A stretch of DNA of 49,326 bases from an uncultured Prevotella sp. (lineage in GTDB: Bacteria > Bacteroidota > Bacteroidia > Bacteroidales > Bacteroidaceae). Positions 114 to 26,817 of the stretch are shown piece after piece (position 1 is the first letter of the stretch; each line of letters opens with the position of its first letter). The DNA lies in assembly GCA_900322035.1 (NCBI GenBank), contig ONYL01000030.1:1-49326 (forward strand). The letters run 5' to 3'. The position numbers were made by a program, and so were the translations under genes. A model generated the notes under the pieces. The model saw nothing but the letters and a program-made list of their open reading frames with translations, was not told the origin of the DNA and did not search any database.

Positions 114-2624
114 TTATTTTCTAACGGTTATTTTCTTTGTCAGTGGACCTTGTGCCGTCTTAGCCCGAAGAATATAGGTGCCTTGTGGCAGACCAGTTGT
201 GGACAAACTTGTTCCGTTGGATGAGGCTACGCATTGGCCAACCATGTTGTAAAGGCAGATTTGCTGTGCCTGGCAAAGTATCCGGCTACCATCGAAACTG
301 ATGACTTTGTCCACAGTCGTCTTTGAGATGCCGGTATTTACCGGTTCTCCGGCAATGAATTTTACACGATTGTTGTCGCTTGGTATTATGTATTCGCTTG
401 ATTGCGGATTGTAGAGCGACAATTCGTAGGTGTGTCCCTCTATGGCCTTTTCCATCGCTAAGGTGAAAGTGAACGTTGTACCAGTGCTGCCAGCTGGAAT
501 GGCAATGCTGTCGGTGGCGATCCTTTCCGTTTCTTCCCACTCATCTTCGTCGTAGAAGACTGCCGTGAGCGGACCATTGAAATCATTTCCCTCATTGCTG
601 ATGGTGGCCTCAAGGACTATGTTGTTGGAAGGGACTACACCATTCTCACCGGAGAGAATTCTTAGATCGTCGTCTATATTCAACATAGCTGGTTTGACTG
701 CACCCTTTAAGGCGATATGTCCTATGGCAAGTTCAATGTCTTCCTTGTCTCCGTATTCATCCTCTTCTGTACTCGTGCCTATGAATTTTACCACGTAGTC
801 ATCATCGGTGACGAGGTCATCGTTGAGAGGTTCGGTAAATGTTAGGGTTGTAACAGTGTGTCCGGGAATGGCCACGATGCGACTCTCAGTGGTTTGGGTG
901 GGGTAAACTCTGCGTTTTCCGTTGACATAGAATAATAGACTAACGTCGCCCACGTAGTCACCGCCCTGATTGTTGAAGGTCACCGTAATCTTATTGGTCT
1001 GTCCGCCGATGAGCGTGTCGGGAGTAATGTCTTCCACAGAAACCTTCGGTCCACCTTCAGTCTCCCAGGTCATGTCCGTGTCGGTCAAGGTCAGACTGTA
1101 GTATTTGTTGGCTCCGGCAAGCACATTCATGAAACGCGTCTTGCTGTAGTCGTCGTTGGCGGTGGTGTAGGTAGGTACCAGCAGATAGCTGCCAGCTTTA
1201 ATACTGTCGGGGATAGAAAGCTTGTATGTCAGTTTGTCGTCTCCATCATAGAGGCCTAAAGTATCGGGCTTTATAGTTGACTGCCATATGATGGTGCTGT
1301 CAGGAGTCATCAGTGTCCAGTTGAGCTTGCAGAACAACGTATCTGACGTGGATGAAATGTTGGTCAGTCCGTAGATTGAAGTGCTGACGGCAGAGTTGCG
1401 GTCGAAGGTGTCACTGATGCTTTTTACTTTGTTGTAGACCAGATTCCACACCGTTTCAGCCGAGCCGCCCTGGTCGGGCTGCATACCGGCGATGAAAAGC
1501 TGATGATATTTGAAGGCAGCATTCGATGCCGAACCGCCTACCCCCTGTTCCATGGGCTGGAGTGAGGAAATCAAGAAGTAGCCGTTGTTCATTCCGCCCC
1601 ACCCCCAGTTGACGTGGTAAAGGCCATCGGCATCCATACCGTCGAGCACGAAGAAGTGGCCTTCCTGTCTCCTGGTCACTCCACCATACGGAACGGGTCG
1701 CCCGGCTTCAATCTCGCTGATGAGCATGCTCTCATAGTCTGACGCTGGAGTATAGTCGCGGGGGACATAGCGCGCCCCCTTGTCATAACCAAAATATTTG
1801 GTAATCACAGGAACCACATCCACATCGTAAGCCCCTGTGCCACTGGGTGTATAGTCACTCTGGAGCGCTGCTCCGATGTTAAACATCAGTTTCGCGATGG
1901 CACTTTTCGTCGTGTCTTCACTATATTTGTCGCATGTCGGCGTCATCACGCTCCAGTCGTAAGACGTATTCAGATCTGCACTTACTGTTTGTTTGGCCGT
2001 GGCTGTGGTATACGAGATGCTGCCCGTAGAAGCATTAGGATATTTCCAAAAATACATCACTTGGGCCAAGGCCGTGGCTACACAACCCGTTGGAGCGCGT
2101 CCGCTCACCTCTTCCTCCTCATATTCGTCATAGTACGTGATATAGGGACAATAGAGATTGTAAGGTGATTCCTGGTCCCAGGCAATCTCTCCGAGCAGGG
2201 GCTCCACCACTTTCGCGGCCCGGCGAGGCTTACTCATGGTTGTATTGGGATGTGAGATGAGATATTCCATTTGAGCTTCCATCTGGCTGATCCACCATTT
2301 CATGTTGGTAGGCATGATGGCTGTGTCGTATGTTCCTCGGTCGGTATATCCAAGAATTTCGGGTGCTCTGTCGTCACCAGCGATGATCACGAATCCTTCG
2401 TTCCGCCCATTGTTGAACGCATAGAGCGTGTTTTGCCCTTTGGCATCCTTGCCGGTATAGGCAAGTGAAAGGGTCTTGGCAGCAGGCGCGACTTTGTGTC
2501 CTTCGGCTGCTCTGATAAGATACTGCGCGGCAATGGCCTTCGCCCTGTTTGGAGTCACTGGGGCGGAGGTAATGGTGAGGCTTGTCAAAAGGAGAAGAAG
2601 CCCGGTTAGATAAATTTTCTTCAT
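114..2624 (-). CDS. Secreted C10-family (streptopain-like) cysteine protease with T9SS sorting domain
   Basis: This 836-residue protein is a secreted papain-fold cysteine protease of peptidase family C10, the family of streptococcal SpeB and Prevotella interpain A. Residues 1-20 form a signal peptide, about 21-145 an inhibitory propeptide, and about 146-385 the catalytic domain. The nucleophile is Cys181 in PTGCVATALAQ and the catalytic histidine is His323 in EGHFFVLDG, followed by the NWGWGG motif (339-344) usual for the family. The middle holds beta-sandwich-like repeats, and the last ~60 residues (LYNMVGQCV, then GTYILRA and a basic end) match a type A sorting domain for type IX secretion, so the enzyme is probably exported and anchored at the surface. 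It is divergent from a TPR/AraC regulator. A role in degrading host protein is inference from the family. Confidence 0.93.
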   Translation of the reverse strand: MKKIYLTGLLLLLTSLTITSAPVTPNRAKAIAAQYLIRAAEGHKVAPAAKTLSLAYTGKDAKGQNTLYAFNNGRNEGFVIIAGDDRAPEILGYTDRGTYDTAIMPTNMKWWISQMEAQMEYLISHPNTTMSKPRRAAKVVEPLLGEIAWDQESPYNLYCPYITYYDEYEEEEVSGRAPTGCVATALAQVMYFWKYPNASTGSISYTTATAKQTVSADLNTSYDWSVMTPTCDKYSEDTTKSAIAKLMFNIGAALQSDYTPSGTGAYDVDVVPVITKYFGYDKGARYVPRDYTPASDYESMLISEIEAGRPVPYGGVTRRQEGHFFVLDGMDADGLYHVNWGWGGMNNGYFLISSLQPMEQGVGGSASNAAFKYHQLFIAGMQPDQGGSAETVWNLVYNKVKSISDTFDRNSAVSTSIYGLTNISSTSDTLFCKLNWTLMTPDSTIIWQSTIKPDTLGLYDGDDKLTYKLSIPDSIKAGSYLLVPTYTTANDDYSKTRFMNVLAGANKYYSLTLTDTDMTWETEGGPKVSVEDITPDTLIGGQTNKITVTFNNQGGDYVGDVSLLFYVNGKRRVYPTQTTESRIVAIPGHTVTTLTFTEPLNDDLVTDDDYVVKFIGTSTEEDEYGDKEDIELAIGHIALKGAVKPAMLNIDDDLRILSGENGVVPSNNIVLEATISNEGNDFNGPLTAVFYDEDEWEETERIATDSIAIPAGSTGTTFTFTLAMEKAIEGHTYELSLYNPQSSEYIIPSDNNRVKFIAGEPVNTGISKTTVDKVISFDGSRILCQAQQICLYNMVGQCVASSNGTSLSTTGLPQGTYILRAKTAQGPLTKKITVRK

Positions 2625-2650
2625 AATGAAAATAATAGTTTAGTTCGTTG

Positions 2651-2658
2651 CAAATTTA
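2651..2658 (-). promoter_or_regulatory. -7 element for the C10 protease
   Basis: The minus strand reads TAAATTTG, matching the Bacteroidetes TAnnTTTG box, 27 bases upstream of the protease start. No TTTG lies at the expected distance upstream, so only half of the promoter is convincing. Confidence 0.45.
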
Positions 2659-2778
2659 AGGAAATTACAGACAGTGATCGTTCTTTTCCCCTTTCGGGGT
2701 GTCTAATTTCAAGGAATTAGAACATAAATAGATGTTTGGAAGTCTTGAAAAAGTGAATATCTCTTTGAAATTATTTAT

Positions 2779-2786
2779 TAACTTTG
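2779..2786 (+). promoter_or_regulatory. -7 element deciding the regulator start
   Basis: TAACTTTG matches the Bacteroidetes -7 box and lies 26 bases before the ATG at 2813. A longer open frame begins at 2732, but that start would lie upstream of the transcript, so the 2813 start is preferred. No well-placed TTTG is seen; the nearest is only 11 bases upstream. Confidence 0.5.
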
Positions 2787-2812
2787 CACTTGAATTTATT
2801 ATTTTGTCATTC

Positions 2813-4447
2813 ATGCGATATACCCTATATGTTCTCTCTTTTCTGTTCTTTGCAGCAACGCATAGCCTTGCTGCAGGGGCCTCATTAGACTCAAGAGAAT
2901 TAAAACGCTATGCAGACATGCCAACGGAACGCCTCTCGGCCTTAGGAGTACACTATCTCAACGAAAGACAGAAACCCGATTCGGCATTGGTCTGCTACAC
3001 CATCATCGCCGATAGATATCGAAATAAGGAGGGCAGCAAAGCAGAAATGCGGTGCTATGCGCTGGCACTCAATAATTTGGGCTATCTCTACGGGGGCTAT
3101 TATTTGGATTTTGAACATGCCTACGACTATCTTCTTCAGGCCGTCGTGGCAAGCAAGAAATATCATATCAACGACAACCTTGCCTATGCCTATCTGAATT
3201 TGGCAGCTATATATTTCAACCGCAGTGGGCTGTTGGGAATCAGCGACAACGACCATCAAATACTGAAATACTCGAGAATGGCCTTTGATGAAGCCATTAG
3301 ACAAAAACAATGGAATGTGGCAAGCGCGAGTTTTTTCAACTTGTTCTCCTTTCTCTGCGATTCAGGTTCTATCGGTGAGATACAGGATGAGGTCAGGCGG
3401 TTTCTGAGTATTCCAGCCCTGAAACACGATCCGCTATCTAAATTTGTCTTCGATGATTATCAAGGGACTTTGGCTTTTAAAGCGGGAAATTATGAAAAGT
3501 CTTTAATTTGGTATCAGAAACAATTTCGTGATGCTGAGAATGTAAAGATGGTGACCGTGAGCTGTAAGCTGTTAGCGCTTTGGAATATCTATGAGGTTTA
3601 TCATAAGAAAAAGCAATGGCATGAGGCGAAGGCTATCCTGCAGCAACTCGACGGCTATGCATCGAAATATAATGATGCTGCAACACATAACAGAGTACTT
3701 CGCCACTGGGCCGGTTTGTATCGTGAACAGGGAAAGAGCGCTTTGGCAGACCGCTATGATTATCTGTATCTCAAGTCCAAAGACAGCTTGCTGACAAAAA
3801 GCAATGCCGAACGTATGGAGCGATCTGCTTTTGTCTATGAACTTTCTCAGTTGAACAATCAACTCTCAGCCAGCAATGCCCGTCATCATCAGATGGTGAT
3901 GATCGTGGTGGTATTGTCGGCTTTCATCATCGTTATTGCCGTAGCCCTCGTGATTAACATCCGTGGACTAAGAAAGCAGAAAGCCTACGTAAGAAAGCTT
4001 TACGAGAAGAATGTGGAGTTGCTGGCGCATAAAATGCCCATCACGAAATCTCCTTCGTCGGCAGAAGAACGTCCGTCGGGACTTAACGAAGATCTAAAGA
4101 GCTCACTGTTTGGACGTATAGACCAAGCCATCAACGAACCTGAAAATTTCTCCTCTCAGGATTTCTCCCTTCATCAATTAGCCATTCTTGTCGAGTCCAA
4201 TGACAAATATGTGTCGCAGGTGATCAACGAGAGGTATCATAAGAACTTCAAACAGCTGCTCAGTGAGGTCCGTGTGGCTGAGGCTTGCCGCCGGCTTAGC
4301 GACCAGGAACACTATGGACATCTCACCATTGCTGGCATTGCAGCTGATGTGGGGTTTGGCTCCCGTTCTAATTTCGCCTTAGCTTTCAAGCGGATCACGG
4401 GGATCTCTCCTTCAGATTTCCTTCATCAGGCGCGCAGGCAAAGTTAG
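2813..4447 (+). CDS. Membrane-spanning TPR sensor with C-terminal AraC-type DNA-binding domain
   Basis: The 544-residue product looks like a one-component membrane regulator. Residues 1-22 form a signal sequence. The next ~330 residues are helical and resemble tetratricopeptide repeats (AYALALNNLGYLYGG, AYAYLNLAAIYFNRSG), expected in the periplasm. One membrane segment lies near residues 363-385 (MIVVVLSAFIIVIAVALVI), then a basic linker. The last ~90 residues are an AraC-type double helix-turn-helix (LAILVESNDKYVSQVIN, IAADVGFGSRSNFALAFKRITG, ISPSDF). There is no histidine kinase or receiver domain. I chose the start at 2813 because it gives a clean signal peptide and follows the -7 box. It is divergent from the C10 protease, which it may control; that target is inference. 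Confidence 0.85.
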   Translation: MRYTLYVLSFLFFAATHSLAAGASLDSRELKRYADMPTERLSALGVHYLNERQKPDSALVCYTIIADRYRNKEGSKAEMRCYALALNNLGYLYGGYYLDFEHAYDYLLQAVVASKKYHINDNLAYAYLNLAAIYFNRSGLLGISDNDHQILKYSRMAFDEAIRQKQWNVASASFFNLFSFLCDSGSIGEIQDEVRRFLSIPALKHDPLSKFVFDDYQGTLAFKAGNYEKSLIWYQKQFRDAENVKMVTVSCKLLALWNIYEVYHKKKQWHEAKAILQQLDGYASKYNDAATHNRVLRHWAGLYREQGKSALADRYDYLYLKSKDSLLTKSNAERMERSAFVYELSQLNNQLSASNARHHQMVMIVVVLSAFIIVIAVALVINIRGLRKQKAYVRKLYEKNVELLAHKMPITKSPSSAEERPSGLNEDLKSSLFGRIDQAINEPENFSSQDFSLHQLAILVESNDKYVSQVINERYHKNFKQLLSEVRVAEACRRLSDQEHYGHLTIAGIAADVGFGSRSNFALAFKRITGISPSDFLHQARRQS

Positions 4448-9954: not shown

Positions 9955-10150
9955 ATTGGCGAATGCCATGCAACCGTTTGGCGAATGCCATGCAACCGTT
10001 TGGCGAATGCCATGCAACCGTTTGGCGAATGCCACGCAACCGTTTGGCGAATGCCATGCAACCGTTTGGCGAACGCCATGCAACCGTTTGGCGAACGCCA
10101 TGCAACCGTTTGGCGAACGCCATGCAACCGTTTGGCGAACGCCGCAATTT
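9955..10150. repeat. Array A: nine tandem 22-bp repeats with a dyad core
   Basis: The dyad GGC-nnnn-GCC recurs every 22 bases, starting at 9958, 9980, 10002, 10024, 10046, 10068, 10090, 10112 and 10134. Each unit is the core GGCGAATGCC or GGCGAACGCC followed by ATGCAACCGTTT. The first five copies have AATG and the last four AACG, so copies have expanded locally. One copy has CAC for CAT. There are no spacers, so it is not a CRISPR array. It lies just past the end of the minus-strand acyltransferase operon. A related array lies at 26.7 kb. Confidence 0.95.
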
Positions 10151-10272: not shown

Positions 10273-11208
10273 TCAGCGTAGCAGCTGCGCCCTGCCGAAG
10301 ATCCACGACAGATGCAGACGGTCGAGGGACTTGGCAATGAGCAGCGAACCCACAATGCCCATCACGATGACCGCTACGGCATGCAGCACTCCACTTGCGT
10401 CGAATTGGAAAATGGGAAGAAGATATTTGCCCGCCATCGTGAAAATGGGGTGGAACATATAGACGGGCAGGGTGTTGCGGCCTAAATACAAGATGGCGTC
10501 GAGCGGCTTGCCATGACAATACCGCTTGAGGTAGGCGGCCGACGAGAGAAAGCAAAACGCCATCACCAACACGAGGACATTGCCCCAATACCACTCTGAG
10601 TCGATGAAGAGCAGCAGCAACAGGGGGACGACGGCCAACCAAGAGGGGGCGAACAGCTTGTTGTAGTCGACCATAGAGACACGCAACACTATACCTATAT
10701 AATAATATATGGCGTGGGTCCAGTTCAGTAGGGGAGTGAACTGGGACACGCAAAGGAGGACAATGCCGTAGGCGATGAGCTTGAACGAGCCGGACTTGCC
10801 GGGAAGGCAACGGAATGTGGCGTAGCCCAAGAAGCCGCACACCAACATGACCCGAAAGAACCAGTAGGGGCCTATGGCGTGGATGCACAGCACGTAGAAC
10901 GCCGTGTCCCAATCCAAATGGTCGATGCCGTCCCTCACGGGCAAATAGAGCGAGAGCACCATGTAGCCGGTGACCAAGATCACGTAAGGCGACAGGATTC
11001 GGAGCAGGTAGACGGCAAACTTCTTGACGGGCTTGTCGAAGTTGACCAGATAGCCGGTGACCAACAGGAACGTGGGCATGAGAAACGACAACACGCCACT
11101 CTTGACATTGGGGTGGATATTGCCAAAATTGACAATATGCACAAAGATGACAAGGGCAATCAATATGGCTCTCTGAAAGTCTATCTCGTCAATGTGGCTC
11201 TTGGGCAT
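10273..11208 (-). CDS. Acyltransferase-3 family membrane protein
   Basis: The 311-residue protein resembles acyltransferase family 3, integral membrane enzymes that O-acylate surface sugars or lipids. It has about ten hydrophobic segments. Near the N-terminus are Arg13 and, in IALVIFVHI, His24, the spacing expected for the OafA-type catalytic region. The later motif LGRNTLPVYMFHPIF is also typical. It is the last gene of the six-gene operon, five bases after the SGNH gene. Its acyl donor and acceptor cannot be read from sequence; acetyl transfer to a surface glycan is the usual role in the family. Confidence 0.83.
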   Translation of the reverse strand: MPKSHIDEIDFQRAILIALVIFVHIVNFGNIHPNVKSGVLSFLMPTFLLVTGYLVNFDKPVKKFAVYLLRILSPYVILVTGYMVLSLYLPVRDGIDHLDWDTAFYVLCIHAIGPYWFFRVMLVCGFLGYATFRCLPGKSGSFKLIAYGIVLLCVSQFTPLLNWTHAIYYYIGIVLRVSMVDYNKLFAPSWLAVVPLLLLLFIDSEWYWGNVLVLVMAFCFLSSAAYLKRYCHGKPLDAILYLGRNTLPVYMFHPIFTMAGKYLLPIFQFDASGVLHAVAVIVMGIVGSLLIAKSLDRLHLSWIFGRAQLLR

Positions 11209-11213
11209 GGCGG

Positions 11214-12119
11214 TCAGCTTTTGTCGTTCAGATTGGCATGGATGACACTGATGAACTCATGGGTGAAGAGGTCTGCCCCATGGCTGTTGAGGTGCACTTC
11301 GTCCTTGAACAGCTCGGGATGCAGATAGTATTTCTTCGACCAGGAATAGTCGTAGAGGGGGATTTGGCGATCCTTGCAGTAGCGGGCCAGCCATTGAGAG
11401 CAGCCCCGTGTGGTCAGGCGGAGCGTAGGAGCGTAGGTGACGACGAGCCTCACGTTGCGGCTGCGGCAGAGGCTGACGATATGGTCCAGCCTCGACAGGC
11501 GTACTGAGTCGGGAGAGAAGGGCTTGGTGGAGACTTCGTGGGGAGTGTGGTAGGCACCGTCCAAAGGTTGGTAGCCGCACAGTTCGGGACACTTCTTGGA
11601 GAGGCACAGCTGCAGCACCTCGTTGAACACGCGGTTGTTGCGATAGAGGTTGGACTGCAGCTTCAGCCGCTCCAAGGGACTGTAGGCGCTGTCCATGGCC
11701 TGGGTGAGCGGCACGCTCATGCCATAGAGGCATTTCAGGTTCTTGAACTGGTCGTCCTTGGGGGCTTCCATCATGTCGGAGCTGACGTCGAGTACAATCA
11801 GCTTGGGCGTGCAGCGCTTGAGATACGAGGCCACGCACAGGTCGAAATAGTCCATCTTCACCCCCGACCGCCCTCCGTTGAAGCAGCTGAGGCCCGTCTC
11901 CCGCTGGATGATGCGTGGGTCGAAACTGTGGTGGGCCCTCGACGCTCCGAGGATGAGAACGTCAGACGTGCGGTGGAACAGCGTCTGGATGGTGTTGGAG
12001 AGGTTGTACTGCGTCTGGGGCGCATGGCGGATGATCAGCTTGGAGGTGGCTCCCACCACAAGGTCGGCACAGAGGAGGGTGGCGGCAAACAAAGCGACGA
12101 AAAATATCTTTTTCTTCAT
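11214..12119 (-). CDS. DltD/AlgJ-like SGNH-fold protein, membrane anchored
   Basis: The 301-residue product begins with an uncleaved-looking hydrophobic segment (residues 5-22), so the rest is probably periplasmic. It has an SGNH-hydrolase-like layout: GASRAHHSF with Ser60 as the candidate nucleophile, and near the end DEVHLNSHG with Asp273 and His276. The frame is open upstream to 12227, but 12119 gives a sensible signal anchor and lies 11 bases after the MBOAT stop. Proteins of this type (DltD, AlgJ, AlgX) accompany MBOAT enzymes and pass acyl groups to polymers. That role here is inference from the neighbours. The acceptor is unknown. Confidence 0.78.
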   Translation of the reverse strand: MKKKIFFVALFAATLLCADLVVGATSKLIIRHAPQTQYNLSNTIQTLFHRTSDVLILGASRAHHSFDPRIIQRETGLSCFNGGRSGVKMDYFDLCVASYLKRCTPKLIVLDVSSDMMEAPKDDQFKNLKCLYGMSVPLTQAMDSAYSPLERLKLQSNLYRNNRVFNEVLQLCLSKKCPELCGYQPLDGAYHTPHEVSTKPFSPDSVRLSRLDHIVSLCRSRNVRLVVTYAPTLRLTTRGCSQWLARYCKDRQIPLYDYSWSKKYYLHPELFKDEVHLNSHGADLFTHEFISVIHANLNDKS

Positions 12120-12130
12120 TGACCCTAAGT

Positions 12131-13579
12131 CTAAAATTGGAAATATATGAATTGCGGCCCGTTGAACTCTCCCTCCAACAGGATGACGGCCAAGAGCAAG
12201 GCCATGCTCACGGCCTGGACATACCATTTGGGAGAGTGGAAGAAATGGATGTTGAGCTTCTCCTCGTCCTTCCAGTCCTTGAACAGCATGAGCAGCAAGG
12301 GCGGGAAATACATGATGAACGTCACGCGCTGGGCCACATACGGATAGAGGAATCCCGCGGAATACTGCGACAGATAGCCGAAGAAGTCGGCGATGCTATT
12401 GCTGCGGAAGATGATGTTGCCAAGCGTCACGAAGGCGAGCATCTTCAGGATGCGCAGGTAGCGGTAGGTGGTGTTCTTCTTCAGGGAGTGTGCTTTCTCA
12501 AAGTGTTTTCTCCTCTTCGACACCAAGTTGTTGAAGATGAGGCAGCAGCCATGATAGAATCCGAAGAGGATGAACGTCCAGTTGGCTCCGTGCCAGGCGC
12601 CAATGGCAAGGAGGTTGATCATCACGGCCAAGTTGAGCCCCCACATGCCGAGGTTGCGGAACTTGAGGTTGAGCGGTGTGAACACATAGTCGGTGAGCCA
12701 GCTGGTGAGCGTGATGTGCCACCGCTTCCAATACTCCGTGATGTTGACGGCGAAGAACGGCAGGCGGAAGTTCTCCAGGCTTCGGATGCCCAATATGCGT
12801 CCCACGCCGATGGCCATGTCGGAATAGCCCGAGAAGTCGGCGTAGAGCTGGAACGAGTAGAGCACGGCGGCGATGGTGAGCGAGGTGGCGTTGTGGTGGG
12901 TGTAGTTGTTGAACACGGCGTCGGTGTAGCCGCATATCACGTCGGCTACGCACATCTTCTTGAACATGCCCCAGAGGATGCGCTTGCAGCCTTCGGCCAC
13001 GTCGGCCAAGCAGAGCTGGTGCGGCGTGCCCAACTGCTCCAAGAAGGCCTTGGGGCGGTCGATGGGGCCGGAGAGTATGGTGGGGAAGAAGGCCACGTAG
13101 GTGGCGAAGCGGATGAAGTCGCCCTCCGCGTCCATCTTCTTGCGGTGTATCTCCACGAGGTAGCTGATGAGCTTGAATGTGAAGAAGCTGATGCCTACGG
13201 GCAGGATAATCTTGAGGGTGTGGTGGCTGACGTGGAATCCCATCGAGGTGAACAGGTCCTCGAACGACTCGATGAAGAAGTTGAGATACTTGAAATAGAG
13301 CAACAGCAGGATGCCCAGCCACACGCCAAGGTTGGTGAGGCGCGACGCCTTTCGGGGGGCCGCGTCCCTGTGGCGTTGGATGCCCTTACCTATATAATAG
13401 GTGACGACGGTGCTCACCAAGAGGATGGGAACGGCCTTCCAGTTGGCGTAGGCGTAGAAAAAGTATGACGCTATCAGAAGAAGTATGTTCTGCCAGTTTG
13501 AGTTCTTTCGGCAAACGCCGAAGTAAAGGACCAAAACTGGCAGAAAAAAGAGCAGGAAGGCAAGCGAGTTGATAGTCAT
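12131..13579 (-). CDS. MBOAT-family membrane O-acyltransferase (DltB/AlgI-like)
   Basis: The 482-residue membrane protein belongs to the MBOAT family, close to AlgI and DltB. It has about ten hydrophobic segments, the motif YADFSGYSDMAIG (246-258), EYWKRWHITL with His288, and GAWHGANW with the invariant MBOAT histidine His330. DltB moves an acyl group from a cytoplasmic carrier protein across the membrane to an outside acceptor. Here the carrier-protein gene ends two bases before this start and an SGNH partner follows 11 bases after the stop, so the same job is likely. The acyl group is probably what the FkbH-like protein loads. Confidence 0.93.
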   Translation of the reverse strand: MTINSLAFLLFFLPVLVLYFGVCRKNSNWQNILLLIASYFFYAYANWKAVPILLVSTVVTYYIGKGIQRHRDAAPRKASRLTNLGVWLGILLLLYFKYLNFFIESFEDLFTSMGFHVSHHTLKIILPVGISFFTFKLISYLVEIHRKKMDAEGDFIRFATYVAFFPTILSGPIDRPKAFLEQLGTPHQLCLADVAEGCKRILWGMFKKMCVADVICGYTDAVFNNYTHHNATSLTIAAVLYSFQLYADFSGYSDMAIGVGRILGIRSLENFRLPFFAVNITEYWKRWHITLTSWLTDYVFTPLNLKFRNLGMWGLNLAVMINLLAIGAWHGANWTFILFGFYHGCCLIFNNLVSKRRKHFEKAHSLKKNTTYRYLRILKMLAFVTLGNIIFRSNSIADFFGYLSQYSAGFLYPYVAQRVTFIMYFPPLLLMLFKDWKDEEKLNIHFFHSPKWYVQAVSMALLLAVILLEGEFNGPQFIYFQF

Positions 13580-13581
13580 CT

Positions 13582-13827
13582 CTATTTCTTGAGTCTGTTC
13601 TCGATAGAGTCAACCAATTGGCCGACGTTGCTCCAACTCAGGATTTCGTTGGAGGTAAACTTGATGCCGAAAGCCTTCTCTATGGCCACTATGAGCTGCA
13701 CGTGGCTCAGCGAGTCCCATTCCTCCACATCGTCGGCAGTGGTATCGTCGTTCAACACAATGTCTTCGTTGTCCAACTCGTCGCAGAAGATTTCGTTCAC
13801 TTTCTTGAAGATTTCACTTCTTTCCAT
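13582..13827 (-). CDS. Stand-alone acyl carrier protein
   Basis: The 81-residue acidic protein is an acyl carrier protein. Ser39 in the motif EEWDSLSHV is the site for phosphopantetheine attachment, and the helix after it (LIVAIEKAFGIKF) is typical. It is not the fatty-acid ACP by context: it sits between a VOC protein and an MBOAT acyltransferase and is encoded two bases before the latter. It most likely holds the acyl group loaded by the FkbH-like protein and hands it to the MBOAT, as DltC does for D-alanine. No phosphopantetheinyl transferase is encoded nearby, so a housekeeping one must modify it. Confidence 0.93.
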   Translation of the reverse strand: MERSEIFKKVNEIFCDELDNEDIVLNDDTTADDVEEWDSLSHVQLIVAIEKAFGIKFTSNEILSWSNVGQLVDSIENRLKK

Positions 13828-13846
13828 AATCGATAAATGTTGTTAC

Positions 13847-14245
13847 TTATTTCTTGTTTACTAATTCCATGAACCCCATTTCGGCATTGAAGAAATAGCA
13901 TATCTTGCGGTTTCCCAAGGCCGGGGCCTCCACGGGTTTGAAGAGGGGAGTCCAGTTGTTGGCGGTCAGCTCCTCGCTGAGCCTGTCCACGTCGTCGCAG
14001 GCGTAGCAAAGGTGGTAGGGCGCTACGCCCCGCTTCTTGAGCATGCGGAGCATCGTGGCGTTGTTGTCGTAGGGCCGCACCAGCTCGATGTCGGTCTCTC
14101 CCTCCTTGCGGAGGAAGCAAATCTTGGTTCTCTGCCGGTCGTCGTCCACCGTCGGCCCGCGCTGGTAGCCCAAAAGCTCAAACTGGCGGGCTGTGCGGTC
14201 GATGTCGTCGGTGAGGTATCCGATGTGTTCCAATTCGAAGTCCAT
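13847..14245 (-). CDS. VOC-superfamily (glyoxalase/epimerase-like) protein
   Basis: The 132-residue protein has the vicinal-oxygen-chelate fold, the superfamily of glyoxalase I and methylmalonyl-CoA epimerase. The four metal-ligand positions are filled: His7 (LEHIGYL), Glu54 (DIELVRP), His78 (PYHLCYA) and Glu127 (GFMELVN), so it is probably an active metalloenzyme. The frame is open up to 14272, but the ATG at 14245 starts the domain correctly and lies just after the upstream stop at 14251. Placed between an FkbH-like loader and a carrier protein, it may act on the carrier-bound three-carbon unit, for example at the alpha carbon; that is inference. Confidence 0.85.
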   Translation of the reverse strand: MDFELEHIGYLTDDIDRTARQFELLGYQRGPTVDDDRQRTKICFLRKEGETDIELVRPYDNNATMLRMLKKRGVAPYHLCYACDDVDRLSEELTANNWTPLFKPVEAPALGNRKICYFFNAEMGFMELVNKK

Positions 14246-14250
14246 AGCTG

Positions 14251-15996
14251 TTATTCTTTTGTGATGTAGCATTCGCGGGGCTGGTAGCCGTCCACGCTAA
14301 GCTCGTATCTCTTGGAGCCGTCGGCCTGCTCTTCCATCAAGGTGAATCCCAATTGGTCGTAGTGTTCCTTCACCATCTGGTTCTTCAGCGTGGGCAGGTA
14401 CTGGCCTACAATCTTCCTGTAGCCGCGTCTGCGGGCCTCCTCCACCATCGTGTTGAGCGTGAAGTTCTCCATGCCGCGTTTCAGCACCCTGCAACTCATG
14501 AACCACGTGTCCACGAAGAGACTTTCGCTGTCCAAGGGCCTCATGATGACGACGGCGATGAGGCCGTTGTCGCCGAACTTGTCTTTGAGCGTGAAGCTCA
14601 GGTCGGCCACTTTGTCGTCGTCGGCGAAAGCCTTGATGTCGGCCTCCGTGTAGCGCACCGTGCGCAGGTTGAACTGGTTGCTCCGCTGCGAGAGCTGGGC
14701 CACGCGGGGGGTGTTGAAGGGCGTGAACCCGCCGACGGTCGACACCATGCCCAACGACTTGAGGAAGTCGGCCTCGCTGTCGAAGGTCTTCTTCAGCGAT
14801 ACGCGCTTGGCCTCCACCTGGTATTGCTTGGTGCGGTCCTTGTCGGCGCTGCTGTAGTTGGCCGTCTCAAAGAGATTGAGCGAATAGAGGTACTCCAAGT
14901 ATTCGGCGGGGTCCTCGGGCAGCTCGGGAACGGTGATGCCCGGGATGTGTTCCCTCACGATGTTGCGCTCGAAGGGATTGTCGTCGAGGAAGACCATGGA
15001 GTCGAAGGCGATGTTGAGGATGCTTTGTATGGTCCTGATGTTGTCCACCTTTGTCTCCCAATTGGCCTGGAACACGGCGATGTCGTCCAACTTGAGAATC
15101 ATGTCGGGATGCTTGAGGAAAGGCTCCTTGGCCTTGTCCTCGTCGTTCTTCGAGGCTACGCAGACGATGATGCCTCGCTGGCGCAGCTTCTTCACCCACA
15201 TCTGAAACTCCGTGAAGGCCTTGCCGATGCCCAAGCCGTGGCCGAGCTGGATTCCCTCCAGCCCGTCGTCGCCTACCACTCCGCCCCAAAGGGTGTTGTC
15301 CAAGTCCAAGATGAGGCATTTCTTGAACTGTCCCTTGCAGGCGCAGATGATGTCCATCACTCTGTCGGCCACGTAGGGGACAGCGTCGACGCTGAGCACC
15401 ATCTCCGTGCTGACGTAGATGTTGGCGTCGAACATGAAGTCGCGGCCCAGCTTGTTTTGCAGCCCGGCGATGTCGCAGACGAACAGGTTGGGGTGCTTCT
15501 GGGCAAGTTCCATCAGTCCGAAGTTGAGTTTGCGCACCTGATAGGTGAACGACGACTCCACCTTGTTGGCGTAGGAGCCGAACACCGTGTCCTCAATCTC
15601 AGGATAGTTGAGGCAGATGATCTTCTTGCCGCCCAATGCGGGTGTCTCGGCTACGGACTCCACAAACTGCAACCGCTCGCTGGCCAAGGAGACCTGCTCC
15701 TGCGGGGAGAGCATGCTGTGCTTTTCGCAGAGTTTGTGGGTGGACTGGAAAAGGACGATGAACTCGGCGTCGTGTTTGTAGAGCTCGCTGTCGGGATCCA
15801 TGAATTGTTGGTACACTTGGTTGTACTCGGCCTCGAATAGGTCGATGTTGTATCCTTTGGCCACGCCTAAGCCACGAAGAGCCGTAGCCAAGAACTGGGT
15901 GGCCGTGTCGCCTATCAGGGCTACGCGGACCACAGGATTTGATGCGGCGGGCTGCTTGGCCAGCCTTTTCAGATCTTTCAACGTTAGTTTGCCCAT
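14251..15996 (-). CDS. FkbH-like HAD/GNAT protein, probable glyceryl (or similar) loader of the carrier protein
   Basis: The 581-residue protein matches the FkbH family, whose studied members turn 1,3-bisphosphoglycerate into glyceryl thioester on an acyl carrier protein. An N-terminal SGNH-like region spans about 1-220. The HAD phosphatase domain follows with DLDNTLWGG (231-239), the SKND segment (282-285) and DDNPFER (338-344). The C-terminal third is GNAT-like, with the family block QRSNQFNLRT (437-446). The frame is open upstream to 16161, but MGKLTLKDLK at 15996 fits the family start and the promoter. It is the first gene of the operon, and no AMP-dependent ligase accompanies it, so it most likely supplies the acyl group for the carrier protein. 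Confidence 0.9.
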   Translation of the reverse strand: MGKLTLKDLKRLAKQPAASNPVVRVALIGDTATQFLATALRGLGVAKGYNIDLFEAEYNQVYQQFMDPDSELYKHDAEFIVLFQSTHKLCEKHSMLSPQEQVSLASERLQFVESVAETPALGGKKIICLNYPEIEDTVFGSYANKVESSFTYQVRKLNFGLMELAQKHPNLFVCDIAGLQNKLGRDFMFDANIYVSTEMVLSVDAVPYVADRVMDIICACKGQFKKCLILDLDNTLWGGVVGDDGLEGIQLGHGLGIGKAFTEFQMWVKKLRQRGIIVCVASKNDEDKAKEPFLKHPDMILKLDDIAVFQANWETKVDNIRTIQSILNIAFDSMVFLDDNPFERNIVREHIPGITVPELPEDPAEYLEYLYSLNLFETANYSSADKDRTKQYQVEAKRVSLKKTFDSEADFLKSLGMVSTVGGFTPFNTPRVAQLSQRSNQFNLRTVRYTEADIKAFADDDKVADLSFTLKDKFGDNGLIAVVIMRPLDSESLFVDTWFMSCRVLKRGMENFTLNTMVEEARRRGYRKIVGQYLPTLKNQMVKEHYDQLGFTLMEEQADGSKRYELSVDGYQPRECYITKE

Positions 15997-16162
15997 ACAG
16001 TGTTGTTGCCTTAGCTTAATTGGTTTGTTGGTTTGTCCGTCAGCCTCTTTCCGCCCGACTGCTGCGTCGGCTGTGAAATCGCTGGCTGTTACTTCCCGAT
16101 GGGCCCGGCTTCGTTTCGCCAAGTCCTGGCCCGTTTGCCGATGGCCCCGAAGTAAATGCATG

Positions 16163-16193
16163 CAAAGGTATAAAAAAATCCTTTGTCTGCAAA
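16163..16193 (-). promoter_or_regulatory. Perfect promoter of the FkbH-MBOAT operon
   Basis: On the minus strand TTTG (16193-16190) and TACCTTTG (16170-16163) are 19 bases apart. Transcription should start near 16156, leaving an untranslated leader of about 160 bases before the start codon at 15996, long enough to carry regulation. Confidence 0.85.
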
Positions 16194-26677: not shown

Positions 26678-26817
26678 AACAGTGTGGCGGTCGCCGCACA
26701 ACAGTGTGGCGGTCGCCATCCAACAGTGTGGCGGTCGCCATCCAACCGTGTGGCGGTAGCCATCCAACAGTGTGGCGGTAGCCATCCAACAATACGGCAG
26801 TTGCCACACAACAACGT
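26678..26817. repeat. Array B: six tandem 22-bp repeats related to array A
   Basis: Dyad cores start at 26686, 26708, 26730, 26752, 26774 and 26796, a strict 22-base period. Typical units are GGCGGTCGCC or GGCGGTAGCC followed by ATCCAACAGTGT. The last unit reads GGCAGTTGCC, in which both halves of the dyad have changed together (G to A and C to T), keeping the symmetry. Aligned to array A, 16 of 22 positions agree, so the two arrays belong to one repeat family. Confidence 0.93.

What the first reader, a model, noticed from the sequence alone, without database searches (positions are those of the whole stretch)
10273..16193. A dlt-like operon with an FkbH-type loader in place of the adenylating enzyme
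Six tightly packed minus-strand genes (gaps of 2-19 bases) follow one perfect promoter: FkbH-like, VOC, acyl carrier protein, MBOAT, SGNH protein, acyltransferase-3. The dlt operon has a ligase, a carrier protein, an MBOAT (DltB) and an SGNH protein (DltD). Here FkbH, known to put glyceryl on a carrier protein from 1,3-bisphosphoglycerate, takes the place of the ligase. The parts predict that a three-carbon glycolytic acid (glyceryl, or a derivative shaped by the VOC enzyme) is loaded, exported and esterified to a surface polymer or lipid. No glycosyltransferase or polyketide gene is nearby, so it is not a normal FkbH cluster.
Basis: partly seen in the sequence, partly recalled or inferred. 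Interest (0 to 1): 0.8.

Follow-up and report, generated by a model that had tools for sequence, protein, structure and literature searches.

The report
Operon predicted to esterify bacterial surface
A gut-type bacterium carries six neighbouring genes that look like a kit for taking a three-carbon acid straight from sugar breakdown, holding it on a small carrier protein and attaching it to the outside of the cell, with one exchangeable slot that seems to decide which acid is made.

Summary
In detail: a compact six-gene minus-strand operon behind one Bacteroidota-type promoter. FkbH, ACP and MBOAT are not neighbours by chance: of 64 related loci with enough flank, 57 have MBOAT and 56 an SGNH-type protein within 6 kb, against about one MBOAT per genome in the genus. 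Two alphaproteobacterial plasmids carry FkbH, ACP, MBOAT, an SGNH-motif protein and VOC together. The same genus has ligase versions: DltA-like ligase, ACP, DltB-like MBOAT. So "dlt-like with FkbH as loader" holds as function; by descent most FkbH-linked MBOATs form their own clade. New here: the slot between FkbH and ACP is exchangeable (nothing, VOC, MaoC+SDR, MaoC+split transketolase); in one 94%-identical pair the swap begins at the FkbH stop codon. I infer that glyceryl-ACP is loaded, then kept, altered at C2 (VOC, this window) or turned into lactyl-ACP (MaoC+SDR), and esterified outside. Acyl group and acceptor are untested. New variant of a known kind.

The parts
16163..16193 (-). Bacteroidota-type promoter TTTG-N19-TAccTTTG (consensus recalled)
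   Evidence: pattern 7 times in window vs 0.34 expected; the only match directly upstream of the operon
14251..15996 (-). FkbH-type glyceryltransferase/phosphatase (581 aa), predicted ACP loader
   Evidence: TIGR01686 304 bits, PF21211 286 bits; solved relative 3slr, BF1531 (B. fragilis recalled from the tag); D231, D233, C502 in 76 of 76 aligned, window included
13847..14245 (-). VOC metalloenzyme (132 aa), predicted to act at C2 of the carried acyl group
   Evidence: PF13669; nearest solved 2qh0/3hdp, filed as lactoylglutathione lyase and glyoxalase I, then methylmalonyl-CoA epimerases; H7, E54, H78, E127 in 28 of 28, window included
13582..13827 (-). acyl carrier protein (81 aa), Ser39 in a W-D-S-L motif
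   Evidence: PF00550; S39 70 of 70; one of two PF00550 matches in the genome
12131..13579 (-). MBOAT membrane O-acyltransferase (482 aa), DltB-like
   Evidence: TIGR04091 208.5 bits, below its cut-off of 375; only solved relatives found are DltB chains; H330 75 of 75; only PF03062 match in the genome assembly
11214..12119 (-). SGNH-like protein (301 aa) with N-terminal hydrophobic anchor, DltD/AlgJ-like role predicted
   Evidence: G58, S60, H276 invariant and D273 at least 90% in 33; in the wider set of 40: G58 40, S60 39, H276 38; profile hits 6vjp/6wn9 E 0.004, AlgJ 0.25, AlgX 0.29 and 0.73, with unrelated chains between; hydrophobic stretch in the first 75 aa of 40 of 40
10273..11208 (-). 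acyltransferase-3 (311 aa), second predicted membrane acyltransferase
   Evidence: PF01757 85 bits; AT3 within 6 kb in 18 of 64 related loci

Best explanation
The operon is a surface-acylation system that works like dlt but is charged without an ATP-dependent ligase. FkbH takes D-glyceryl from 1,3-bisphosphoglycerate, removes the phosphate and passes glyceryl to Ser39-phosphopantetheine of the ACP. The VOC metalloenzyme then alters the carried acyl group at C2, most simply by epimerising it through a metal-held enediolate. The DltB-like MBOAT takes the acyl group from the ACP at the cytoplasmic face and moves it across the inner membrane; the anchored SGNH protein puts it on a hydroxyl of a surface glycan or lipid. 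AT3 is a second O-acyltransferase for the same or a nearby target. Related operons keep loader, carrier and exporter and change the middle enzymes: none (glyceryl), VOC (altered C2), MaoC+SDR (dehydration to pyruvyl-ACP, then reduction to lactyl-ACP), MaoC+transketolase (a larger unit). Shown: gene content, conservation, catalytic residues, linkage, exchange of the slot. Inferred: each reaction, acyl identity, export, acceptor.
For: 57 of 64 loci with at least 6 kb downstream have MBOAT, 56 SGNH-type and 61 ACP within 6 kb (with unfiltered ORFs 71 of all 75 loci have ACP). 160 MBOATs in 150 genus genomes, so by my arithmetic about 0.5% expected by chance. A convergent version (FkbH-VOC facing SGNH-MBOAT-ACP) keeps the content. 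In G528 FkbH and ACP-MBOAT-SGNH lie on different contigs of one genome. FkbH, ACP, MBOAT, VOC and an SGNH-motif protein together on S. meliloti pSymB and a Rhodobacteraceae plasmid, with the residues checked kept except H288 of one MBOAT. 66 of 68 MBOATs of one clade (support 99) have ACP adjacent; 13 of the 15 ACP-less MBOATs fall outside it, and the other two sit in operons that hold an ACP. Ligase-ACP-MBOAT operons in the same genus. Tailoring swap at the FkbH stop codon. [quoted passage not shown]
Against: 7 of 64 related loci have no MBOAT within 6 kb. In an even draw over the phylum 3 of 6 close FkbHs and 1 of 24 distant ones have MBOAT nearby, so FkbH-ACP also stands beside other transferases (hexapeptide, AT3, GNAT). 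Five FkbH+ACP-linked MBOATs (L083, L085, L129, L131, L134) fall outside the 68-row clade. The FkbH of G528 has no ACP or MBOAT beside it. The VOC is below the epimerase cut-off (44 vs 115 bits), and its nearest solved relatives are filed as glyoxalase I. The SGNH call rests on motif and weak profile hits; in the Alphaproteobacteria on motif alone. No structure could be predicted. No acceptor gene was recognised near. FkbH chemistry known to me is from polyketide and peptide pathways.
Confidence: 0.68

Rival explanations
1. The FkbH-ACP part makes a glyceryl-type donor for a cytoplasmic sugar N- or O-acyltransferase elsewhere, while MBOAT-SGNH acetylates a surface polymer independently and is only co-regulated.
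For: FkbH-ACP occurs without MBOAT beside hexapeptide, GNAT or AT3 transferases (L079, L084, L087 hexapeptide; L082 GNAT; L056 AT3); some MBOAT-SGNH pairs stand beside FkbH loci without their own ACP.
Against: 66 of 68 MBOATs of one clade have ACP adjacent, while 13 of 15 ACP-less MBOATs fall outside it; the MBOAT is nearest to DltB, which takes its acyl group from a carrier protein (function recalled); no cytoplasmic sugar acyltransferase in the operon.
Confidence: 0.15
2. The ACP is loaded by FkbH, but the acyl group delivered is not an epimer of glyceryl: the VOC acts as dehydratase or isomerase, giving pyruvyl-, lactyl- or a hydroxy-aldehyde-type acyl.
For: VOC and MaoC+SDR exchange in one slot, as if solving related tasks; nearest solved VOC is filed as glyoxalase I, whose product is a lactoyl thioester (chemistry recalled); both would begin with C2 proton removal (inference).
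Against: L039 has VOC together with MaoC and SDR, so VOC is not simply their substitute (that locus has no MBOAT); the epimerase model is the only NCBIfam match of the window protein and matches 28 of 28 members at E 0.001 or better, below its cut-off for the window protein.
Confidence: 0.3
3. The ACP carries an ordinary acyl chain, and FkbH is a plain phosphatase or has another substrate.
For: HAD phosphatase core (TIGR01681); the solved relative 3slr is filed as uncharacterized.
Against: Full-length TIGR01686 match at twice the cut-off and Cys502 kept 76 of 76 and in 3 of 3 alphaproteobacterial FkbHs; the genome has a second carrier protein that could serve fatty acids; no relative of a KAS III within 6 kb of FkbH in any of 64 loci (one query, other ketosynthase types not searched).
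Confidence: 0.1
4. The genes are a remnant of a mobile polysaccharide island with no joint function.
For: Patchy: FkbH of any kind in 19 of 150 genomes of the genus, own included; standalone here.
Against: All six frames open and tightly spaced; catalytic residues kept; the same set in two bacterial phyla.
Confidence: 0.04

Closest known systems
dlt operon (DltA-DltC-DltB-DltD, D-alanylation of teichoic acids; its function recalled)
   Same: Loader, small carrier protein, DltB-like MBOAT and an anchored SGNH-type protein in one operon; only solved MBOAT relatives found are DltB
   Different: FkbH instead of an AMP-forming ligase; extra VOC and AT3; MBOAT and ACP below the DltB and DltC cut-offs; a Gram-negative host (recalled), so no teichoic acid expected; MBOAT clade not nested in ligase-linked MBOATs
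FkbH-ACP glycerate units of tetronate, methoxymalonate and NRPS pathways
   Same: Stand-alone FkbH next to a stand-alone ACP; same catalytic family; glyceryl-ACP as proposed intermediate (PMC7489565, passages)
   Different: No PKS or NRPS, no FabH-type tetronate enzyme and no methoxymalonyl oxidation enzymes in the operon; the product would go to a membrane acyltransferase
Ligase-ACP-MBOAT operons of the same genus (L144, L146, L147)
   Same: Loader gene first, then ACP and DltB-like MBOAT, then a protein of about 340 aa with a hydrophobic N-terminus (judged by eye)
   Different: Loader is an amino-acid-adenylation/DltA-like ligase; separate MBOAT clade
Bryostatin-type FkbH with DH and KR giving a lactyl starter (recalled, not found in the papers held)
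   Same: FkbH plus dehydratase plus ketoreductase, matching the MaoC+SDR variants of related operons
   Different: There fused in a polyketide synthase; here separate enzymes feeding an MBOAT; this window has VOC instead
AlgI/AlgJ/AlgX and PatA/PatB polysaccharide O-acetylation (recalled)
   Same: MBOAT plus SGNH-type protein
   Different: No carrier protein or loader there; acetyl donor
Glyoxalase I and methylmalonyl-CoA epimerase (VOC superfamily)
   Same: Fold family and four metal-ligand positions; both act next to a thioester-type carbon (recalled)
   Different: TIGR03081 below cut-off, glyox_I not matched by the window protein; sits in an acyl-ACP operon

Membership tests
FkbH family (glyceryltransferase/phosphatase) | TIGR01686 above its curated cut-off | tested here: met
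   304 bits vs 146.65, positions 3-321 of 323
FkbH family (glyceryltransferase/phosphatase) | DxD HAD nucleophile pair and conserved Cys of the S-C-R motif (roles recalled) | tested here: met
   D231, D233, C502 in 76 of 76 aligned and 3 of 3 alphaproteobacterial proteins
FkbH family (glyceryltransferase/phosphatase) | Transfers glyceryl from 1,3-bisphosphoglycerate to an ACP | not testable with these tools
   needs an in vitro assay
dlt operon | DltA ligase | tested here: not met
   no AMP-binding match on this contig; all 5 found in the genome are on C20 and C78
dlt operon | DltB equivalog TIGR04091 | tested here: not met
   208.5 bits, cut-off 375; nearest solved proteins are nevertheless DltB
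dlt operon | DltC carrier | tested here: not met
   NF003464 DltC 18 bits, cut-off 68; a carrier protein with S39 is present
dlt operon | DltD-like anchored SGNH protein | tested here: inconclusive
   G-x-S, D-x-x-H and N-terminal hydrophobic stretch present; no family hit
dlt operon | Teichoic acid as acceptor | not testable with these tools
   host is a Gram-negative Bacteroidota (recalled), acceptor unknown
Active MBOAT | Catalytic His (role recalled) | tested here: met
   H330 in 75 of 75 and in both alphaproteobacterial MBOATs
Methylmalonyl-CoA epimerase | TIGR03081 above cut-off | tested here: not met
   44 bits, cut-off 115
VOC metalloenzyme | Four metal-ligand positions H/E(Q)/H/E (recalled) | tested here: met
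   H7, E54, H78, E127 in 28 of 28 and 2 of 2 alphaproteobacterial VOCs
Tetronate or methoxymalonate glycerate operon | FabH-like or dehydrogenase partners and a PKS | tested here: not met
   none recognised among the six operon genes and 20 flanking ORFs scanned

The most novel reading that the evidence does not exclude
Bacteroidota and some Alphaproteobacteria have an ATP-independent, glycolysis-fed counterpart of dlt. FkbH charges a dedicated ACP with glyceryl, and in Bacteroidota an exchangeable middle module (none, VOC, MaoC+SDR, MaoC+split transketolase) rewrites it on the carrier before one MBOAT-SGNH exporter esterifies the cell surface, so strains change their surface ester (glyceryl, C2-altered glyceryl, lactyl, a larger C5-like unit) by swapping one to four genes between fixed neighbours.
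Probability: 0.45. Interest if true: 0.82.

Novelty: new variant of a known kind. Interest (0 to 1): 0.7.

Why it matters
If true, surface D-alanylation would have a sister chemistry that needs no ATP-consuming ligase and taps a glycolytic intermediate directly, linking surface decoration to glycolytic flux. The exchangeable middle slot would be a compact way to change which small acid decorates the surface, which could matter for phage, immune and antimicrobial-peptide recognition of gut bacteria. It also gives FkbH a role outside natural products and predicts specific ester masses that can be looked for.

Tried and rejected
Chance clustering: rejected by the linkage counts and the two-phylum recurrence. 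Hidden ligase or ketosynthase: no AMP-binding match on this contig; in the 64 loci a ligase-like ORF within 6 kb in 1 (L026, E 2e-07, 5.6 kb away) and a KAS III relative in 0 (single-sequence queries). Between FkbH and MBOAT one gene stays unassigned in each of L066 (302 aa) and L068 (442 aa). Papers on FkbH with MBOAT: two hits, both natural-product clusters where FkbH and MBOAT are assigned to different steps (passages); none for HAD-IIIC with MBOAT or for three of FkbH/ACP/SGNH/O-acyltransferase; ten listed for three of MBOAT/SGNH/ACP/Bacteroid, none relevant by title and abstract start (listing); one, irrelevant by title, for FkbH with lipopolysaccharide (listing). One search was too broad (19,294 papers, the 30 listed hold no FkbH) and says nothing. 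A guess at S. meliloti locus numbers found nothing. The bryostatin parallel could not be verified and stays recalled. Campylobacter cj1302 is an FkbH-domain gene in a flagellar-glycan locus (PMC7099621, passage), and a di-O-methylglyceric derivative is reported on C. jejuni 11168 flagellin (PMC3958885, passage); the link between the two is my inference. Structure prediction of SGNH and VOC was planned and not possible.


Full report
What is there. Six intact minus-strand genes lie between 15996 and 10273 with gaps of 5, 19, 2, 11 and 5 bases, behind a Bacteroidota-type promoter at 16163-16193. They are FkbH, VOC, ACP, a DltB-like MBOAT, an SGNH-like anchored protein and an AT3 (SGNH by motif). 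The genome assembly (2.85 Mb, 87% complete) shows one FkbH, one MBOAT and two carrier proteins; the FkbH, the MBOAT and one carrier are here. The five AMP-binding matches are on other contigs. None of the 20 flanking ORFs scanned matched a glycosyltransferase or PKS family; further small ORFs of the window were not scanned.

Is the grouping real. A scan of genome contigs with FkbH gave 75 loci, mostly Prevotella and other Bacteroidales, with two Chryseobacterium, one Saprospiraceae, one Fibrobacteria and one record labelled Firmicutes. I dropped 11 with under 6 kb downstream before the main count. Of the 64 left, 61 have ACP, 57 MBOAT and 56 an SGNH-type protein within 6 kb; with ORFs not filtered for overlap, all 75 give 71 with ACP and 65 with MBOAT. 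The families were found with profiles built from these same loci, and the SGNH-type count includes three profile groups (SGNH, SGNH5, ALGX19), of which only the last has a Pfam hit above cut-off in the member scanned. The genus has 160 MBOATs in 150 genomes (93 of 150 with at least one), so an MBOAT within 6 kb of a given gene would be expected in about 0.5% of cases (my arithmetic, 3-Mb genomes). Because favours close relatives, I also used evenly drawn samples. In the genus, 10 of 150 genomes (own included) have a near-full-length FkbH at 70% identity or more (a fragment in G515 not counted), and 7 of these 10 have MBOAT within 6 kb. G483 has AT3 there; G478 has ACP and an upstream hexapeptide gene but no MBOAT; G528 has nothing of the set beside FkbH but PDeac-ACP-MBOAT-SGNH on another contig. 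Over the phylum, 31 of 391 other genomes matched; of the 30 fetched (G327 was not), 3 of 6 at 51% identity or more and 1 of 24 below have MBOAT within 6 kb. The tie to MBOAT therefore belongs mainly to the close FkbH subfamily.

Beyond the phylum. On S. meliloti pSymB the order is VOC, MBOAT, a protein with G-G-S and D-x-x-H motifs (annotated as TonB-dependent receptor), ACP, FkbH; on a Rhodobacteraceae plasmid it is ACP, FkbH, MBOAT, a G-S-S/D-x-x-H protein, VOC, acyltransferase. The two motif proteins have no Pfam hit and no hit to my SGNH profiles. At 34-39% FkbH identity, the checked residues are kept: FkbH D, D, C; VOC H, E, H, E; ACP S; MBOAT H330; SGNH G, S, D, H. The exception is H288, Asn in the S. 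meliloti MBOAT. A third plasmid, Niveispirillum, has FkbH-ACP with WcbI and SDR and no MBOAT annotated or found by profile. Of 118 plasmid records with a match I opened four; one had no usable annotation.

The dlt comparison. The only solved relatives found for the MBOAT are DltB. While testing whether ACP-MBOAT pairs exist without FkbH, I found in the same genus L144, L146 and L147: an adenylating ligase (AA-adenyl-dom 318 and 317 bits in L146 and L147 against 317.4; DltA 247 and 260 against 560; L144 one of two pieces, 272 and 224), then ACP, then a DltB-like MBOAT (161 bits in L146 against 375), then a protein of about 340 aa, without family in L146 and L147. L145 has a ketoacyl-ACP synthase III, ACP (weak profile hit, 34 bits), MBOAT and SGNH. 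So the loader position is filled by different enzymes, as the finding proposed. In the MBOAT tree of 90 rows, 68 rows form a clade (99) in which 66 have ACP within 700 bases on the same strand; the other two (L077, L080) have it in the operon with tailoring genes between. 13 further ACP-less rows fall outside, and so do five FkbH+ACP rows: L083 and L085 of Bacteroidota, L129 and L131 of Alphaproteobacteria and the record L134. The ligase-linked three are a separate clade (100), and the sister of the 68 is ten ACP-less MBOATs. Hence the two operon kinds were probably put together separately. Some rows are on long branches, the tree is a quick one, and the ACP-less MBOATs were found only because they lie near FkbH.

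The exchangeable slot. Among the 64 loci the middle enzymes found within 6 kb are: none 24, VOC alone 23, MaoC+SDR 8, MaoC+transketolase with SDR 5, MaoC+transketolase without SDR 2, SDR alone 1, VOC+MaoC+SDR 1. The VOC of L024 is a short ORF on the other strand behind the operon, so 23 includes one doubtful case; the SDR-only locus (L004) scored a MaoC as well when ORFs were not filtered. In L066-L068 the VOC follows the ACP. On the FkbH tree the state changes at least 29 times over 110 rows (long rows present, no shuffle control was printed). The clearest case is L008 against L015: 94% identical DNA over 2541 aligned positions up to the last base of the FkbH stop codon, then MaoC+SDR in one and VOC in the other, then ACP at 87% and most of MBOAT at 76%. 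MaoC keeps D33 and H38 (19 proteins), and SDR keeps Y148 and K152 (16 proteins), each at 93% or more. No KAS III relative lies within 6 kb of FkbH in any of the 64 loci, and no gene between FkbH and MBOAT was assigned as a ketosynthase, so chain extension looks unlikely and the middle enzymes should act on the loaded C3 unit. Dehydration of glyceryl-ACP gives the enol of pyruvyl-ACP, and reduction gives lactyl-ACP; this is inference, with bryostatin as a recalled parallel.

The VOC of this window. Its nearest solved relatives are 2qh0 and 3hdp, filed as lactoylglutathione lyase and glyoxalase I, then methylmalonyl-CoA epimerases. The four presumed metal ligands are invariant. Both relatives work by removing a proton next to a thioester or hemithioacetal carbon (recalled), which fits C2 of glyceryl-ACP. 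Epimerisation is my first choice at about 0.4, dehydration or isomerisation the rival.

Acceptor. Unknown. 20 of 64 relatives have glycosyltransferases and 12 a polysaccharide deacetylase within 6 kb, which points to a surface polysaccharide there; in this window the flanking genes recognised are transport, efflux, RNA, DNA-repair and other housekeeping types, so the operon must act on something made elsewhere.

Novelty. In the papers held, searches for FkbH with MBOAT, for ACP/SGNH/O-acyltransferase combinations, for HAD-IIIC with MBOAT, and for FkbH with lipopolysaccharide showed no description of this set (listings, with passages read); subscription journals are mostly missing, so this is weak evidence of novelty.

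Noticed in passing
window 9956-10143: Tandem array of 8.5 copies of a 22-base unit between the 3' ends of the AT3 gene and the OPT transporter gene (98% matches).
   Followed up: no
window 26678-26791: A second tandem array with the same period of 22 bases but another unit, 5.2 copies, also between genes.
   Followed up: no
L144, L146, L147: DltA-like ligase, ACP, DltB-like MBOAT and a ~340-aa protein (no family in L146 and L147): a dlt-like operon in the same Gram-negative genus.
   Followed up: partly
L145:6889-10666: Ketoacyl-ACP synthase III, a weakly scoring ACP, MBOAT and SGNH protein in a row: perhaps a third kind of loader for the same exporter.
   Followed up: no
L027, L029, L041, L056, L062, L069, L077: Split transketolase (N and C halves) with MaoC and often SDR near FkbH and ACP; might add a C2 unit to a pyruvyl-ACP.
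   Followed up: partly
L109, L111, L112: Distant VOC-FkbH-ACP trio with one or two proteins of about 350 aa, KAS III by Pfam in L109, plus SDR and a second ACP.
   Followed up: partly
L134 (MT839313.1): A 4.4-kb record labelled bacteriophage from human faeces holds FkbH-ACP-MBOAT; it looks like a bacterial contig filed as phage.
   Followed up: partly
window 114-4447: Peptidase C10 protein with Spi inhibitor domain (114-2624) next to an AraC-type regulator (2732-4447).
   Followed up: no
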